A DNA stretch of 35,095 nucleotides, taken from contig JAJZWB010000027.1 in NCBI GenBank assembly GCA_021846845.1, positions 1 to 35,095 of the forward strand, read 5' to 3'. Shown in pieces: positions 1-6,129 of the stretch. The DNA comes from Actinomycetes bacterium. GTDB lineage: Bacteria; Actinomycetota; Thermoleophilia; Solirubrobacterales; Solirubrobacteraceae. The position numbers were made by a program, and so were the translations under genes. The notes under the pieces are model-generated. The model was not told where the DNA came from, did no database searches, and saw nothing but the letters and a program-made list of their open reading frames with translations. Position 1 is the stretch's first letter. Each line of letters opens with the position of its first letter.

Positions 1-1982
1 CGTGCTCTCGAACGCACGCCGATCAGCATCGTGCCTGCGCCGGCTCCGCTGCCGGTCCAGTTCCGCGCGCCCGCCGCGGCGCGGTTTCGTGTGACGGCAC
101 GCAGGCGCCCGGCGGGCTGCGTGCCGCCGGGGGTGGCCGCGGTGCTGCCGGCGGGCCGCGTGCCGCCGGTGCCGACGCGGGCCCCGGTGCTGCCGGCGGG
201 CTGCGTGCCGCCGGTGGTGGCCGCGGTGCTGCCGGCGGGCTGCGTGCCGCCGAAGCTGGCCGCGGTGCTGCCGACAGCTGGTGTGCCGGCGCCGCCGACA
301 GCCGGTGTGCCGGCGCCGCCGACAGCCGGTGTGCCGGCGCCGCCGACAGCCGGTGTGCCGGCGCCGCCGACCGTCAGGGTGGTGCACGTCGGGGCCGATC
401 CGCCCCCGCTGGGCGTGATCTGGGCGGCGTCGCCGGAGCCTCCGGGCACGGTGCCCGCCTGGCTCGGCGGGCCCGCCTGCGCACCGGCCGGGGGAAGGAG
501 CTGCGCGGTTGAGATCGTCTGCCCTCCGGCCGGCGCCGGTGAGGGGGCGCTGCCGGCGGCCTGGCCTCCGATCGCCGACTGCGCGCCGGCGATGGTGGCA
601 GCGGCGCAGCTGGTCGTCCGGCTCGCCGCTCCCGTCTGGGTGGATGTCTGCGCGTTGCCGCCCAGCAGGTAGAGGTTGTCCGGGTTTGCGATCTCGGTGA
701 GATTCGGGGTGCGGACCGGGTCGGCGGGCCGCTGGGCGGACTGCGCGCGAACGAGGCCGGGAGCAACGGGCGGCTGGATCGCGGCAGCGGGGCCAGCGCT
801 CTGCGGCATCGGCCGCACGCTGAGAGCGACCGACCGCGCCGCGTGCCGGTGCTGTTGCGACCGTGCGGCATCGAAGGCCCGAACGTGGTGCGCGCGGTGG
901 GGGGGCGGGGGGGCGATGTGCTGCAGCTCCAGGGCGCCGCCCGCGGTGACCGCCGCGGCCGCGATGATCGTCACCACATGGCCGGCGGTGGCGATCGCCC
1001 CCGCGCTCGCCGCGGCGCCACCTCCGGTCAGCCCGCTCGCTGCCACGGCTCCACCGCCCAGCGCGGTGCCGCCACCCAGCACGGTGCCGCCGCTCAGCGC
1101 CGTGCCGCTGCCGGCCGACACCCCGGAGGCGCCGCTGCCGGCCGCCGCGCCTGTGCCGGACGCGCCCCCGACGCCCAGCAGCTTGGCGGCGACGCCGATC
1201 GGCCCGAGCGTCGGCACGAGGCCGGTCAGCCCCCGGCTCACACCGCGGACCTCGGACCGGAACTCCCGACACCCGGGGCAATCCCGCAGGTGGCGTCGGC
1301 TCAGGCCGCTCATCCTGACTCCACGGTCGTGGGCGACGACCAGGTCCTCGCGGATGGCCGCGCAGGCGGTCTCACGCGCCTCGCTGGCACGCGCCAAACC
1401 GATCCGTGCCCGGACCAGCAGCGACTTGACCGCCGGTACCGAAACCGACAGCGCCCCGGCCACGTCGGCGTACGTCATCCCGGAAAGCTCGCGCATCAGC
1501 AGCGCCGAGCGCTGCTGATGCGGCAGCCGGCGCACGTCGTCGACCAGCCGCTGCAGCGCGTCACGCTGCTCCAGCCGCGTCACCGGGTCGTCGCCGCCGG
1601 GTCCGGCCGCCAGTGTCGCCGTCTCGTCGCAGGCCACCGCCTGAGGGCGGCGCAGCTCGTCGATGCAGCGGTTGTGCGCGATCCGGTAGAGCCATGCTCG
1701 GAGCGCGAGCTCGCGGTCCGATGCGCGCAGGCTCCGGTACGCACGGACGAAGACGTCCTGAACGGCGTCCTCGGCGTCCGCGGGCGAACCGGCCAGCATC
1801 TGGCGCGAGTAGGCGAGCATCCGCGGGCGGTAGCGGTCGTGAATCGCGCGGAACGCCTCCTCGTTCCCGGATCGGAACAGCGAGACGAGCTGCTCGTCGG
1901 AGCGGAGGCGCAAGAGTGGCGCCCCGAGCGAGACGCGCGCGCGGGAGAGCCCTGCCGATGCTGGGAGAGCGGAGGCTTCCAC
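1..1982 (-). CDS. ECF-type sigma-70 factor with zinc-finger, membrane segment and long repeat tail (3' end outside window)
   Basis: A GTG start at 1982 opens a frame with no stop to base 1, so about 660 residues are visible and the C-terminus is missing. Sigma region 2 lies at residues 41-112 (DAEDAVQDVF near 69-78, RAWLYRIAHNRCIDELRR at 95-112). Region 4 lies at about 143-196 (LSGMTYADVAGAL, then VPAVKSLLVRAR). It is followed by C207-H231-C235-C238, the spacing of an anti-sigma zf-HC2/ZAS finger, and a hydrophobic segment at about 328-350. The rest is Gly/Ala/Thr/Pro-rich, with TPAVGGAG-type repeats at about 537-570 and GGTQPAGS-type repeats at about 571-626. Known: ECF factors carry regions 2 and 4, and ZAS fingers usually sit in a separate anti-sigma protein. 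Inference: a membrane-tethered, self-inhibited sigma factor with an outside tail. The start is the first GTG after a TAGCAT box; nothing better lies downstream before region 2. Confidence 0.85.
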   Translation of the reverse strand, partial: MEASALPASAGLSRARVSLGAPLLRLRSDEQLVSLFRSGNEEAFRAIHDRYRPRMLAYSRQMLAGSPADAEDAVQDVFVRAYRSLRASDRELALRAWLYRIAHNRCIDELRRPQAVACDETATLAAGPGGDDPVTRLEQRDALQRLVDDVRRLPHQQRSALLMRELSGMTYADVAGALSVSVPAVKSLLVRARIGLARASEARETACAAIREDLVVAHDRGVRMSGLSRRHLRDCPGCREFRSEVRGVSRGLTGLVPTLGPIGVAAKLLGVGGASGTGAAAGSGASGVSAGSGTALSGGTVLGGGTALGGGAVAASGLTGGGAAASAGAIATAGHVVTIIAAAAVTAGGALELQHIAPPPPHRAHHVRAFDAARSQQHRHAARSVALSVRPMPQSAGPAAAIQPPVAPGLVRAQSAQRPADPVRTPNLTEIANPDNLYLLGGNAQTSTQTGAASRTTSCAAATIAGAQSAIGGQAAGSAPSPAPAGGQTISTAQLLPPAGAQAGPPSQAGTVPGGSGDAAQITPSGGGSAPTCTTLTVGGAGTPAVGGAGTPAVGGAGTPAVGGAGTPAVGSTAASFGGTQPAGSTAATTGGTQPAGSTGARVGTGGTRPAGSTAATPGGTQPAGRLRAVTRNRAAAGARNWTGSGAGAGTMLIGVRSRA
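105..270. repeat. 39-nt coding tandem repeat in sigma-factor tail
   Basis: About four imperfect copies with period near 39 nt share the core cggcgggctgcgtgccgcc. On the minus strand each encodes about 13 residues of the form GGTQPAGSTAAT. One copy (about 144-182) is longer and more diverged. The reading frame stays open throughout. Confidence 0.8.
271..370. repeat. 24-nt coding tandem repeat in sigma-factor tail
   Basis: Four copies with exact 24-nt period, core gacagccggtgtgccggc, differ at one base in the first copy. Each encodes the octapeptide GAGTPAVG on the minus strand. Near-identity at DNA level suggests recent expansion. Confidence 0.9.
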
Positions 1983-2219: not shown

Positions 2220-2951
2220 ATGGATGCGGCGTCGGGAATCGGTCTGCCAGTGGCCTTTGGCGCGGGGCTGATCTCCTTCCTCTCTCCGTGCGTTCTGCCG
2301 CTGGTGCCCGGCTACATCTCCGCCGTGGCCGGCGGCCCACCGGGCGAGGTCCGCACCCGCAGGGTGGTGGGTCCGAGCCTGCTGTTCGTGGGCAGCTTCT
2401 CGTTCATCTTCATGGCGCTCGGGCTGCTGGGCCAGCGCGCGCTGCGGACGGCCCTCACCGGCCCTGCGGCGCTGAAGGTCTCGGGCGCCCTGATCGTGGC
2501 GATGGGCCTGCTGTTCGTGCTCGCTCCCCTGGTTCCGTCGCTCTCCCGCGAGTGGCACGTGGACCGGCTGATGGAGCGTGCCGGACGCGGAGGTCCAGTG
2601 CTGGCCGGCGCGGCGTTCGCGCTTGCGTGGACACCCTGCACCGGACCGACGCTCGGCGCGATCATCACCGCCGCCGGCACCTCGAGCTCCGCGGCTCACG
2701 GCGCGATCCTGCTCGCGGCCTACTGCGCCGGCCTGGGCGTCCCGTTCCTGATCACGGGCCTGGCGTTCGGCACCGCGACCTCGGCGTTCGGGGTGATCAA
2801 GCGTCACTACCCGGCCGTGATCGGGACCGGCGGGGTCGTGCTGGTGGCGATGGGGGTGATGATCTGGACCGGCGAGTTCACCCAGCTGAACATCACCGTC
2901 AGCCACTGGCTGCAGACGCTCGGGTTGCCGAACCTCTCCAGCGACACATGA
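2220..2951 (+). CDS. ccdA: CcdA-type thiol-disulfide membrane transporter (cytochrome c biogenesis)
   Basis: This 243-residue, strongly hydrophobic protein matches the CcdA/DsbD transmembrane family in length. The two signature cysteines are visible: SPCVLPLVPGY with C24 in the first membrane helix and WTPCTGPTLG with C140 in the fourth, a pseudo-symmetric pair. About six membrane helices can be traced. CcdA passes electrons from cytoplasmic thioredoxin to extracytoplasmic thiol proteins, which in Gram-positive bacteria serves haem attachment to cytochrome c and other oxidoreductases. No resB/resC or thioredoxin-like partner is adjacent in the window, so the substrate cannot be named. The start is the first of two nearby ATGs and sits 9 bases after a TAGCCT box. 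Confidence 0.9.
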   Translation: MDAASGIGLPVAFGAGLISFLSPCVLPLVPGYISAVAGGPPGEVRTRRVVGPSLLFVGSFSFIFMALGLLGQRALRTALTGPAALKVSGALIVAMGLLFVLAPLVPSLSREWHVDRLMERAGRGGPVLAGAAFALAWTPCTGPTLGAIITAAGTSSSAAHGAILLAAYCAGLGVPFLITGLAFGTATSAFGVIKRHYPAVIGTGGVVLVAMGVMIWTGEFTQLNITVSHWLQTLGLPNLSSDT

Positions 2952-2976: not shown

Positions 2977-3097
2977 CGCCCGGCGGCACGATCCGGGCGG
3001 TCTCGACCGTGCCGACGACCTGTGTCGGCGGCTCGATCAGTCGTAGCCCGGCTCGCCCGGCAGCACGATCCGGGCGGTCTCGCCCGTGCCGACGACC
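2977..3097. repeat. 44-bp direct duplication of the Nudix gene 3' end
   Basis: Bases 3054-3097, inside the last codons of the Nudix gene, recur at 2977-3020 just beyond its stop with two mismatches in 44 (offset 77). The copied part encodes [14 protein letters not shown] in the gene. Confidence 0.85.
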
Positions 3098-3663
3098 CGT
3101 GGCTGAACGGGCTTCACCGTCCGACCGCGCGCGTAGTCGAGCAGCTGCGCCGCCGAGCCGAAGCGGTCCAGCTGTTGCAGGTGCTTGATCGTGGGAAACA
3201 CGAGCAGGATCTCGCCCCGGCGGGCGGCGGCCAGCGCCCCTGACGGCGTGAACCAGCGCACGTCGATCATCTCCGAGCCGTCGATCCGCGGCTCGGCGTC
3301 GGGCGGAGCACACGCGAGGAAGAACCAGGTGTCGAAGCGGATCCTGACGGCCGCCGGCGTGATCCAGTGGGAGAAGGCGACGATCTCGCCCGGATCTGGG
3401 AGCAGGACCCCGGCCTCCTCGTCAAGCTCCCGCACCGCGGCTGCGCGCAGGCCGTGCTCGCCTTCCCCGTCGCCCTCGCTGACGGCCCCTCCCGGGAACA
3501 CCCACGCGCCGCCCATGAAGCGGGCCGCGGGGTTGCGCTGCGCAAGCAGCACCTCGAGTCCGCCGTCGCCGTCACGCAGGAGGATCACGGTCGCCGCCGG
3601 CCGGGGGACCGTCTCAGGGCCGTCGTGGAGGTGCTCGCCGGGCCCTGGCCGTACGCCATCCAT
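3037..3663 (-). CDS. Nudix hydrolase
   Basis: This 208-residue cytoplasmic protein has a Nudix signature: GGAWVFPGG at 51-59, then RELDEEAGV at 78-86 carrying the metal-binding glutamates E79, E82 and E83. The loop between the glycines and the RE motif is expanded relative to the standard GX5EX7RE spacing, as in NUDT19-like CoA/nucleotide hydrolases. A WITP segment (about 113-116) and a C-terminal helical region (FPTIKHL at 163-169) also fit that subgroup. The substrate (nucleoside diphosphate derivative or acyl-CoA) cannot be decided from sequence; the nearby acyl-CoA genes make CoA derivatives plausible. It diverges from rubredoxin over 63 bp. The ATG at 3663 lies 6 bases after a TAGGGT box, supporting this start. 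Confidence 0.85.
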
Positions 3664-4083: not shown

Positions 4084-5379
4084 TCACGCTGCGCGCCGGG
4101 TCCGTTTGGGCGCCTCGTGGTCGAAGACGCCCGCGGCTGCCTTCGCCCGCGATGCGCCGTGCTGCTGTTCGGCGCCTGCGCGATGCCAGTCCGCCGGCGC
4201 GTCGGCAGCGGCCTGCGGCTGGTGGCCGAGTGCGCGCGCCACGCTCCCGAGCCGGCGCGCGGCGTCGTCCAGTTCCCCCGGATGATGGGTCGCCATCGCA
4301 GTGAGTCGCAGCCGCGCGACCGGGTTCGCGACCAGCGGCGGCAGCAGCGAGTCGATGAACAACCCGTGCCGGAGGGCCTGCTCGCAGATCGCGGCGGCGA
4401 GCCTGGGATCATGGACCGGCGGCGCCATGATGTGGGAGCGCGACGCGCCGGTGTCGAACCCCTCCCGCTCGAGCCCGCTGCGGAGGGCAGACGCGTTGAC
4501 CGCGAGCCTGCGAACCCGCTCCGGCCGCTCGCGCAGGAGCTCGAGGGCCGCCAGAGCGCCGGCCACCGCGGGCGGCGGGAGGGCGGTGGATGCGGCGAAC
4601 GCCCGTGCGGCGGAGACCAGGTAGCGACCCATGTCGCGATCGCACGCGACGAATGCGCCGTAGGCGCCGAGCGCCGAGCCGAGCGTTCCCGTGATCACGT
4701 CCACGTGGTCCTCGAGACCGCCGGCGGCGAGCGCCCCTCTCCCGTCGGGCCCGATCGCACCGAAGGCGCTGGACTCGTCGACCACGGTTCGGATCCCGAC
4801 GCGCTGAGCCAGCGTCGCGATCTCACGCAGCGGCGCGAGATCGCCGTCGAGGGAGAACACGGACTCGGTCACGATCAGCGCGGCCCGACCCTCGGCCTGC
4901 TCTATGCCCCACGTGAGGTGCTCGACGTCGTGGTGGTCGTACACGAACACGTCGGCTCGCGACAGTCGGCAGCCGTCGACCAGCGCCGGGTGGTTGAGCT
5001 CGTCGGAGAAGATCGTGTCCCCGGGTCTCGCCAGGGCAGCGATCACGCCCGCGGTGGCGGCCTCGCGTGAGCCGAGCAGGAGCGCGGTCTCGCGTCCGAC
5101 GAACTCGGCCAGGCTCTCCTCGGCACGGCGATGGATCGTCATCGTGCCCGACGCCAGGCGTGGTGCGCCGGCTCCCACGCCCCAGCGCACAGCCGCGTCG
5201 GCGGCGGCCTCCCGGACACGCGGGTGATCGGCCAGGCCGAGGCAGTTGTCCGAGCACAGAAGCAGGACGGGCTTGCCGTCCAGCACCACGTGGGGTCCCT
5301 GCGGGCCGCTCACCAGACGGGTGCGACGCTGAAGGCCGAGGGCCTTCAGTTCGTCCAGCCGCGCTTGGATCTGGATCAT
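4084..5379 (-). CDS. BioF/KBL-family (alpha-oxoamine synthase fold) protein lacking the PLP lysine
   Basis: This 431-residue protein aligns across its length with 8-amino-7-oxononanoate synthase/glycine C-acetyltransferase proteins. Retained landmarks are LADHPRVREAA (49-59), SDELNHPALVDGCRLSRA (125-142, including ring-stacking H130), VTESVFSLDGDLAPL (170-184) and GPDGRG (210-215). Several cofactor-site motifs are changed. The lysine of the usual TLGKALG is serine (TLGSALG, S235; codon TCG). DEAHxTG is DESSAFG (D201 kept, His to S204). The SGYxAN loop is SREAAT (104-109). NNYLGL is DNCLGL. The frame is intact with no stop or shift. Known: the lysine forms the Schiff base with PLP and is needed for catalysis. 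Inference: a catalytically altered or dead paralogue, possibly regulatory or scaffolding. The ATG at 5379 follows a TATGGT box by 9 bases; the frame is open further upstream but lacks support there. Confidence 0.85.
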   Translation of the reverse strand: MIQIQARLDELKALGLQRRTRLVSGPQGPHVVLDGKPVLLLCSDNCLGLADHPRVREAAADAAVRWGVGAGAPRLASGTMTIHRRAEESLAEFVGRETALLLGSREAATAGVIAALARPGDTIFSDELNHPALVDGCRLSRADVFVYDHHDVEHLTWGIEQAEGRAALIVTESVFSLDGDLAPLREIATLAQRVGIRTVVDESSAFGAIGPDGRGALAAGGLEDHVDVITGTLGSALGAYGAFVACDRDMGRYLVSAARAFAASTALPPPAVAGALAALELLRERPERVRRLAVNASALRSGLEREGFDTGASRSHIMAPPVHDPRLAAAICEQALRHGLFIDSLLPPLVANPVARLRLTAMATHHPGELDDAARRLGSVARALGHQPQAAADAPADWHRAGAEQQHGASRAKAAAGVFDHEAPKRTRRAA

Positions 5380-5388
5380 GGCGGACCC

Positions 5389-5394
5389 ACCATA
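5389..5394 (-). promoter_or_regulatory. putative -10 box of the pseudo-aminotransferase gene (leaderless arrangement)
   Basis: TATGGT on the minus strand ends 9 bases before the ATG at 5379. It indicates that this degenerate enzyme gene still has an expression signal. Confidence 0.5.
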
Positions 5395-5430
5395 GGGACG
5401 GCGTCGGACAGATCGTGCGCATGGTGACCA

Positions 5431-5538
5431 GGATGCTGTCCGACAGCTGGCCCGGCGTCCGACCCGGGCGGCCGGTCGCCGCGCCGGATGCTGTCCGACA
5501 GCTGGCCCGGCGTCCGACCCGGGCGGCCGGTCGCCGCG
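5431..5538. repeat. two identical 53-bp direct repeats upstream of the HhH-GPD gene
   Basis: Bases 5431-5483 and 5486-5538 are identical over 53 bp, separated by 2 bp. Each contains the small inverted repeat CTGTC-C-GACAG. They lie in the 186-bp divergent region between 5379 and 5566, immediately upstream of the likely promoter of the next gene. They could be doubled operator sites or a slippage product. Confidence 0.95.
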
Positions 5539-5553
5539 GAGCCGGATCCGATC

Positions 5554-5559
5554 TATGAT
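5554..5559 (+). promoter_or_regulatory. putative -10 box of the HhH-GPD gene (leaderless arrangement)
   Basis: TATGAT, five of six matching TATAAT, ends 6 bases before the GTG at 5566. This favours the GTG over the in-frame ATG at 5488, which lies inside the direct repeat. Confidence 0.55.
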
Positions 5560-5565
5560 CGGCCG

Positions 5566-6129
5566 GTGGCCCCCGATCGCCTGCACTTCACGGACTCCGA
5601 CGAGGCCAACGCGCTGATCGCCGAGGATCCGATGGCCCTGCTGATCGGGTTCGCACTCGACCAGCAGGTCTCGGTGCAGAAGGCGTTCGCCGGCCCGCTC
5701 GCCATCCGCGAGCGGCTCGGCACGATCGATCCGGAGGCCCTTGCGGGGGCCGAACTGGAGCCCGTGTTCGCCGCCAGGCCCGCAATCCACCGATTCCCCG
5801 GCGCGATGGCCAGGCGCGTGCGGGATCTCGCCGCGCACATCTGTGACCGCTACGGCGGCGACGCGGCCCGCGTGTGGAACGACGCGTCCGACGGTGCCGA
5901 GCTGCGCGCCAACCTAGCCGCGCTTCCCGGTTTCGGCGAGATGAAGGTCAAGTCGCTGGGCGCCGTGCTGGCGAAGCGGTTCGGCGTTGCGGCGGCGCAG
6001 GATCTGGTGCCGTCGCACCCGACGCTCGGCGACGTAGACTCCGCGGAGGCTCTGGCCCAGTACCAGTCCGCCAAGCGCGCTCACAAGGCCCAGTGGATGG
6101 CGGAGGCACCGGGCGGACCCGGGCGCTAG
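5566..6129 (+). CDS. HhH-GPD family protein (TIGR03252-like)
   Basis: This 187-residue protein resembles the uncharacterised actinobacterial HhH-GPD family (TIGR03252). Visible landmarks are LLIGFALDQQVSVQKAF near the N-terminus, where base-excision glycosylases have VGQQ, and a helix-hairpin-helix-like LAALPGFGEMKVKSLGAVL in the C-terminal half. The catalytic aspartate expected some 15-20 residues after the HhH is not in the usual VD context; PSHPTLGDVDSAE occupies that place. Known: relatives include DNA N-glycosylases of the EndoIII/AlkA superfamily. Inference: a DNA-binding or repair role; activity is unproven. It is the second HhH-GPD gene in the window besides the AlkA-like one at 31078. 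Confidence 0.8.
   Translation: MAPDRLHFTDSDEANALIAEDPMALLIGFALDQQVSVQKAFAGPLAIRERLGTIDPEALAGAELEPVFAARPAIHRFPGAMARRVRDLAAHICDRYGGDAARVWNDASDGAELRANLAALPGFGEMKVKSLGAVLAKRFGVAAAQDLVPSHPTLGDVDSAEALAQYQSAKRAHKAQWMAEAPGGPGR

What the first reader, a model, noticed from the sequence alone, without database searches (positions are those of the whole stretch)
1..1982. Sigma factor carrying its own zinc-finger anti-sigma-like module, membrane helix and repeat tail
Sigma regions 2 and 4 are followed in one chain by C207-H231-C235-C238, a hydrophobic segment at about 328-350 and more than 300 residues of low-complexity sequence. ZAS fingers and membrane anchors normally belong to a separate anti-sigma protein. 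This could be a membrane-tethered, signal-gated sigma factor released by proteolysis.
Basis: partly seen in the sequence, partly recalled or inferred. Interest (0 to 1): 0.55.

Follow-up and report, generated by a model that had tools for sequence, protein, structure and literature searches.

The report
Sigma factor fused to its anti-sigma
A soil actinobacterium has a gene switch whose own inhibitor, a probable membrane anchor and a long floppy tail seem to be built into one protein; the design is known from Streptomyces, and here it belongs to a multi-copy set for which I found no description.

Summary
Window 1-1982 (-) encodes an ECF sigma factor followed in the same chain by C207-H231-C235-C238, a charge-free Gly/Ala linker, a hydrophobic segment (327-352) and a repeat-rich tail. 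Contig C79 overlaps the window end (157 nt, 1 mismatch) and carries the frame to a stop, about 754 aa. The four ligands are present in 32 of 32 rows screened and invariant in two alignments (24 and 25 rows). The module looks like a class I/ZAS anti-sigma domain: four predicted helices, profile match to stand-alone zf-HC2 proteins (hhalign 94.7; controls 0.1, 0.3), best structural match RslA. The hydrophobic segment is conserved after a basic residue (25 of 25) but marginal, so membrane insertion is probable, not shown. The sigma domain lies outside an ECF52-like branch and no NPCBM domain was found. New here, as far as my searches reach: this orthologous group in Solirubrobacterales, within a larger set of such fusions (4 of 12, 4 of 13, 11 of 29 sigma genes found by the model in three genomes). 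Real; new member of a known kind; inhibition, insertion and proteolysis untested.

The parts
1..1982 (-). ECF sigma factor with C-terminal anti-sigma-like module, hydrophobic segment and tail (3' end lies on another contig)
1647..1838 (-). sigma region 2 (residues 49-112)
   Evidence: Pfam PF04542, E 1.3e-16
1404..1535 (-). sigma region 4 (residues 150-193)
   Evidence: Pfam PF08281, E 6.1e-12
1179..1364 (-). ZAS-type anti-sigma-like domain, predicted helices 207-220, 226-234, 236-255, 261-268; ligands C207, H231, C235, C238
981..1175 (-). Gly/Ala-rich linker (residues 270-334) without a charged residue
   Evidence: 25 of 25 rows of A2 without D/E/K/R, 59-95% G+A, 20-64 residues
927..1004 (-). 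candidate transmembrane helix (residues 327-352), basic residue H335 (K in 16 of 25 rows, H in 9)
1..926 (-). low-complexity repeat tail, presumed extracytoplasmic (residues 353-660, goes on over contig C79 to about 754)
263..371 (-). 24-nt tandem repeat, 4.5 copies, 96% matches, in the tail
109..273 (-). 39-nt tandem repeat, 4.1 copies, 83% matches, in the tail

Best explanation
The gene makes a membrane-tethered ECF sigma factor that carries its anti-sigma factor in cis. The N-terminal sigma2-sigma4 is the promoter-recognition part. Directly behind sigma4 a four-helix zinc-type class I anti-sigma domain folds back on sigma and keeps it from RNA polymerase (inferred). A charge-free Gly/Ala tether joins it to one transmembrane helix; the long, fast-changing tail lies outside and probes the cell envelope (inferred). 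Trimming of the tail followed by intramembrane cleavage, and then removal or opening of the anti-sigma domain, would free the sigma factor (inferred from IutY and ECF52). Shown here: fusion, ligand conservation, predicted fold and profile kinship of the module, a conserved hydrophobic segment, paralogous spread. Inferred: zinc binding, inhibition, topology, protease, signal.
For: Sigma domains. C-x23-H-x3-C-x2-C invariant. AF2: residues 201-250 at block-mean pLDDT 95-97 with helices in the order described for class I anti-sigmas; lone weak helix 333-352. hhalign to 8 stand-alone zf-HC2 proteins: 94.7, E 5.6e-8, ligands in register (no sigma domain in those frames); controls CcdA and sigma4 against the same profile 0.1 and 0.3. 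hhalign to 3 fused relatives over Pfam's zf-HC2 cut-off: 95.8. RslA (3hug_B) Z 4.7, rmsd 3.1, 60 residues, next row 2.2, among 15 chains compared. K or H before the hydrophobic segment in 25 of 25 rows of A2, and in 25 of 27 of the rows by a pattern that missed the paralogues L002 and L003. Same order of parts in ECF52-like proteins, which end in an NPCBM domain. In four other phylum members a sigma-hydrophobic segment-Pro-rich chain ends in a folded-looking domain. No separate anti-sigma gene among the neighbours identified. M50 protease in 6 of 6 genomes. Release shown for IutY (PMC5411451) and suggested for SCO4117 (PMC5826349).
Against: Hydrophobic segment is marginal: estimated dG +1.0 for the window with recalled parameters, against -1.5 to +1.6 for six CcdA segments and 1.7-3.7 for the best segment of the sigma parts; local shuffle test weak (8 of 24). 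A second segment at helix 4 is the better one in several rows. Pfam zf-HC2 does not hit the window module; 4 of 25 rows hit it weakly, best E 0.043, and as many hit an unrelated histone family. Profile search of PDB sequences found no anti-sigma and Foldseek with the module alone none. M50 is in 14 of 14 controls, so it says little. No signal or target gene is known.
Confidence: 0.6

Rival explanations
1. Soluble sigma factor with a C-terminal metal or thiol switch: the CHCC module changes shape on zinc loss or oxidation (as in soluble ZAS proteins or CorE-type extensions); the hydrophobic segment is not inserted and the tail is cytoplasmic filler.
For: Ligands invariant; hydrophobicity marginal; AF2 helix 333-352 only at pLDDT about 52-54; tail without Pfam domain. 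A soluble sigma-zinc fusion without room for a helix exists in the same genus (L218).
Against: The hydrophobic block keeps its place and its preceding K/H (25 of 25); the same layout in ECF52-like proteins ends in a carbohydrate-binding domain, which is expected outside. PMC7406223 (passages) says that zinc in membrane-bound class I domains could be structural rather than sensory.
Confidence: 0.2
2. Tethered sigma factor that works at the membrane without cleavage: the cis anti-sigma opens on an outside signal and RNA polymerase is engaged while the protein stays anchored.
For: Anti-sigma domain and sigma stay covalently joined after any intramembrane cut, so that cut alone cannot separate them; flexible charge-free tether (25 of 25).
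Against: Print evidence on IutY and ECF52 favours proteolytic release; no precedent for a tethered active sigma factor is known to me (recall).
Confidence: 0.1
3. The module is structural or vestigial: a fused former anti-sigma that only stabilises the protein, with activity set by transcription of the gene.
For: Relatives exist with the hydrophobic segment but without the zinc motif (L229, L231, L239, L245).
Against: The four ligands are never lost among 24 and 25 aligned rows at 52-70% identity to the window.
Confidence: 0.1

Closest known systems
ECF52 sigma factors (SCO4117 of Streptomyces coelicolor)
   Same: Order of parts: sigma2-sigma4, CHCC zinc domain, Gly/Ala linker, basic residue plus hydrophobic helix, low-complexity stretch; module profiles align (hhalign 95.2). 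Compared with ECF52-like proteins that I picked by architecture, not with SCO4117 itself.
   Different: Sigma domain far away (3.2 changes per column from L251 to the nearest member of the window's group; the ECF52-like rows form their own branch of four, SH-aLRT 97); no NPCBM domain found; tail rich in S, T, G and A as well as P.
ECF48 and ECF53 (Actinobacteria)
   Same: Described as C-terminal fusion with a zinc finger and one or two helices (PMC8999054).
   Different: No labelled reference sequence was at hand, so kinship was not tested.
IutY of Pseudomonas putida (ECF243)
   Same: Sigma and anti-sigma in one polypeptide with a membrane segment; release by Prc and RseP shown (PMC5411451, passages).
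   Different: Its anti-sigma domain is periplasmic, not a cytosolic zinc domain; the signal is the siderophore aerobactin through an outer-membrane receptor.
RslA (Mycobacterium tuberculosis) and other zinc class I anti-sigma factors
   Same: Predicted fold; RslA is the best structural match; Hx3Cx2C motif as described in PMC7406223.
   Different: Separate proteins acting in trans.

Membership tests
ECF (group IV) sigma factors | Sigma regions 2 and 4 without regions 1 and 3 | tested here: met
   NCBIfam sigma70-ECF superfamily 80 bits, cut-off 42.9
Class I / ZAS anti-sigma domain | Hx3Cx2C motif with an upstream Cys/His ligand, conserved in orthologues | tested here: met
   motif as in PMC7406223, the upstream ligand spacing is recalled
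Class I / ZAS anti-sigma domain | Three-helix bundle plus fourth helix | tested here: inconclusive
   four helices predicted, the fourth at pLDDT about 57 and below; best match RslA Z 4.7, under the level the tool calls safe; Foldseek none
Class I / ZAS anti-sigma domain | Sequence kinship to zf-HC2 (PF13490) | tested here: inconclusive
   Pfam not significant (4 of 25, best 0.043); profile-profile 94.7 and 95.8 with controls 0.1 and 0.3
Class I / ZAS anti-sigma domain | Binds zinc and inhibits the sigma factor | not testable with these tools
   needs biochemistry
ECF52 | Sigma domain in the ECF52 clade | tested here: not met
   outside the branch of four ECF52-like and allied rows (SH-aLRT 97, quick tree); those rows were identified by architecture, not by the published group model
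ECF52 | Zinc domain, membrane region, low-complexity region in this order | tested here: met
   membrane region predicted only
ECF52 | C-terminal carbohydrate-binding (NPCBM) domain | tested here: not met
   no Pfam hit in the 665 residues, the C79 end or 5 orthologues
ECF48 / ECF53 | Sigma domain in these clades | not tested
   no labelled reference sequence was obtained; classification paper not held
Sigma factors activated by proteolysis (IutY type) | Stepwise cleavage releases active sigma | not testable with these tools
   only the presence of an M50 family protease was checked

The most novel reading that the evidence does not exclude
Because inhibitor and sigma are one chain, intramembrane cleavage alone cannot release an active sigma factor. 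The conserved charge-free Gly/Ala tether (25 of 25 rows; a similar one in ECF52-like proteins) may act on the protease that follows: a Clp-type protease would start at the new C-terminus and remove the anti-sigma domain but stop before sigma4, so that limited degradation matures the sigma factor, as in NF-kappaB p105 (recalled). Solirubrobacterales would then run a multi-copy set of one-protein envelope sensors on this principle.
Probability: 0.08. Interest if true: 0.75.

Novelty: new member of a known kind. Interest (0 to 1): 0.4.

Why it matters
One-protein sigma/anti-sigma sensors are known from a few ECF groups, with one worked-out case in the review read (IutY). Here soil bacteria of one order use the layout repeatedly within a genome, with tails that differ from copy to copy. 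That gives natural variants to learn which part senses, how a cis inhibitor is removed without destroying the sigma factor, and whether a disordered tail alone can sense the envelope.

Tried and rejected
Pfam zf-HC2 on the module: not significant; the claim rests on profile-profile comparison and fused relatives instead. A first comparison used nine 'stand-alone' zf-HC2 proteins (A4, prob 95.3); on checking, one of the nine (L218) proved to be a sigma fusion itself, so I repeated it with eight (94.7) and added two controls (0.1 and 0.3). Profile search against PDB sequences: two chance hits, E 1.7 and 2.1. Foldseek with the whole model: the rows shown are sigma factors or parts and complexes of them and a few other proteins, no anti-sigma chain picked out; with the module alone: 3 hits at E 6.8-8.8. 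VIA-align looked at only 15 chains.

Considered and dropped: redox link to the neighbouring CcdA gene; CcdA was found near the sigma gene in only 10 of 33 loci, several cut short by contig ends. Idea that all zinc-motif fusions are one clade: disfavoured, p-AU 0.038 on a quick tree, 8 changes of the label. Idea that a sensor domain hides at the end of the tail: none found by Pfam in the window protein, the C79 end or 5 orthologues.

A first extraction script missed nearly all orthologues because of a wrong regular expression and was replaced; a first census misplaced the sigma end in some rows and was replaced, which still counts one G005 gene twice (L163/L168), so 11 of 29, not of 30; the same double is in the first tree and was taken out of the second. 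Rows left out: A1 used 24 of 30 loci of the orthologous group; A2 and A3 used the window and 24 of the 32 loci (L042-L073) that match over most of the query; the shuffle test used 24 of 32 rows (tails of at least 110 residues). One search crashed and was rerun.

Literature: searches. Among the papers listed I saw none on such fusions in Solirubrobacterales or Thermoleophilia; one search listed 8 of 8 papers, only 15 of 2,477. The library holds open-licence papers only, and two key surveys (Casas-Pastor 2021; Huang 2015) are not held. PMC8103513 (passages) does not mention ECF48, ECF52 or ECF53.

Full report
What is there. The window is one whole contig (C67) of a 3.68 Mb, 219-contig genome. 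The named relatives with the highest identity are Solirubrobacterales: Conexibacter, Solirubrobacter and MAGs. On the - strand a frame opens at GTG 1982 and runs off the window end. Pfam finds sigma regions 2 and 4_2. The stated residues C207, H231, C235 and C238 are exact. Contig C79 overlaps the window end by 157 nt with one mismatch and continues the frame to a stop at C79:438-440, about 754 residues in all. In relatives the gene that follows on C79 (metallo-beta-lactamase-fold by my reading of its sequence) lies convergent downstream of the sigma gene in 17 of 33 loci, several of them cut short, which supports that C79 is the neighbour. The last ~95 residues have atypical codon-position GC, so the exact end is unsure.

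Conservation. A search of 151 genomes of the order with the first 252 residues gave a match in all 151; many of these cover the sigma part of other sigma factors. I took the 30 best loci, window included. With two paralogues of the same genome, 32 of 32 rows carry the C-x-H-x3-C-x2-C motif behind sigma4. In alignment A1 (24 of the 30) and A2 (window plus 24 of the 32 genome-contig loci that match over most of the query) all four ligands are invariant. The two sets overlap in part, since some genomes are in both.

The module. AlphaFold2 on A2 gives confident sigma2 (block means 93-97), moderate sigma4 (73-87), and 95-97 for residues 201-250, with helices 207-220, 226-234, 236-255 and, much weaker (about 57), 261-268. 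Three helices plus a fourth is the layout of class I anti-sigma domains as described in PMC7406223 (passages). Profile-profile comparison with eight zf-HC2 proteins in frames of 78-134 residues without a sigma domain, from three genomes of the family, gives probability 94.7 with the ligands in register. The neighbouring CcdA family and the sigma4 part of the same proteins score 0.1 and 0.3 against that profile. Three fused relatives in which Pfam's zf-HC2 model scores over its cut-off behind a sigma match (the sigma match of L226 is weak) give 95.8, and ECF52-like modules 95.2. Among 15 chains realigned by VIA the best is RslA, an anti-sigma of M. tuberculosis: Z 4.7, rmsd 3.1, 60 residues; the next row is 2.2. 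Against: the direct Pfam, PDB-sequence and Foldseek searches are negative or weak.

Linker and hydrophobic segment. Between module and hydrophobic segment lies a stretch of 20-64 residues, 59-95% Gly+Ala, without any D, E, K or R in 25 of 25 rows. The segment follows a K or H in 25 of 25; in the other row set a pattern for it fits 25 of 27, the misses being the paralogues L002 and L003. Its peak exceeds shuffles of the same tail in 21 of 24 rows at p<=0.05 but a stricter local shuffle only in 8 of 24. A dG estimate with parameters recalled from memory gives +1.0 for the window, against -1.5 to +1.6 for six segments of CcdA, 2.4 and 2.7 for two soluble neighbours, and 1.7 to 3.7 for the sigma parts; in several rows the helix-4 segment is the better candidate. 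I read this as a marginal but probable single membrane helix.

Tail. It is rich in G, A, T, P and S with tandem repeats, differs widely between relatives, and shows no Pfam domain in the window protein, the C79 end and four of five orthologues; L067 has a collagen-like stretch below the cut-off (E 0.0037). In four more distant members of the phylum without the zinc motif (L229, L231, L239, L245), a Pro-rich stretch after the hydrophobic segment ends in a folded-looking domain, as expected if this side is outside; the two that I tested have no Pfam match.

How common. In three genomes I read each sigma gene that the A1 model finds at E<=1e-5 (other ECF genes may be missed): the zinc motif follows sigma4 in 4 of 12 (own), 4 of 13 (G066) and 11 of 29 (G005, after removing one double); with a hydrophobic peak of at least 1.6 in 3, 4 and 8. 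On a quick tree of 75 sigma domains, 19 of the 32 zinc-motif fusions fall in one weakly supported group of 21 (SH-aLRT 81), the window inside a group of six (96); one clade for all 32 is disfavoured (p-AU 0.038).

What is known. The review PMC8999054 (abstract, part 1 of 2 of section 3.5, and passages) says that ECF48, ECF52 and ECF53 of Actinobacteria have a C-terminal zinc domain and one or two helices and are expected to be activated by proteolysis. PMC5826349 (abstract, one result section and discussion) describes SCO4117: sigma, zinc finger, membrane region, Pro-rich region, carbohydrate-binding domain; a truncated form with the sigma domain alone has a lesser effect than deletion. IutY shows release by Prc and RseP (PMC5411451, passages). 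They match the window protein part for part, but their sigma domains lie far away and the window family shows no NPCBM domain. So it looks built like an ECF52 protein without being one.

Verdict. New, as far as my searches reach, are the orthologous group, its repeated use within genomes, and the conserved charge-free Gly/Ala tether, which the passages I read do not discuss. What it senses, and how the inhibitor is removed from a sigma factor to which it is joined, stay open.

Noticed in passing
window 2220-2951 (+): CcdA-type membrane protein (by my reading), divergent from the sigma gene; in L048 relatives of it and of the neighbours at 3037-3663 (NUDIX-like) and 4084-5838 (aminotransferase-like) lie together upstream of the sigma gene.
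   Followed up: partly
L229, L231, L239, L245: Sigma factors of other actinobacterial families with a hydrophobic segment and Pro-rich stretch but no zinc motif, ending in a folded-looking C-terminal domain; no Pfam match in the two tested.
   Followed up: partly
L218 (G051): Sigma domain followed by a zf-HC2 domain with no room for a membrane helix: a soluble sigma/zinc fusion in the same genus. L201 (G000:C125) may be another (weak sigma match).
   Followed up: partly
L049 7611-8684: An amino-acid dehydrogenase-like gene starts in a 4-base overlap with the sigma stop codon; gaps of 1.0-1.4 kb before the next gene in 11 loci suggest the same gene there, for which the window/C79 and L048 leave no room.
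   Followed up: partly
L067, L071, L072, L073: Tails with collagen-like repeats (G-x-y) in place of the S/T/P-rich tail (Pfam collagen below cut-off for L067).
   Followed up: no
window 1-672 (+) and other frames: Long antisense open frames over the sigma gene and its repeats, as expected at high G+C; not taken as genes.
   Followed up: no
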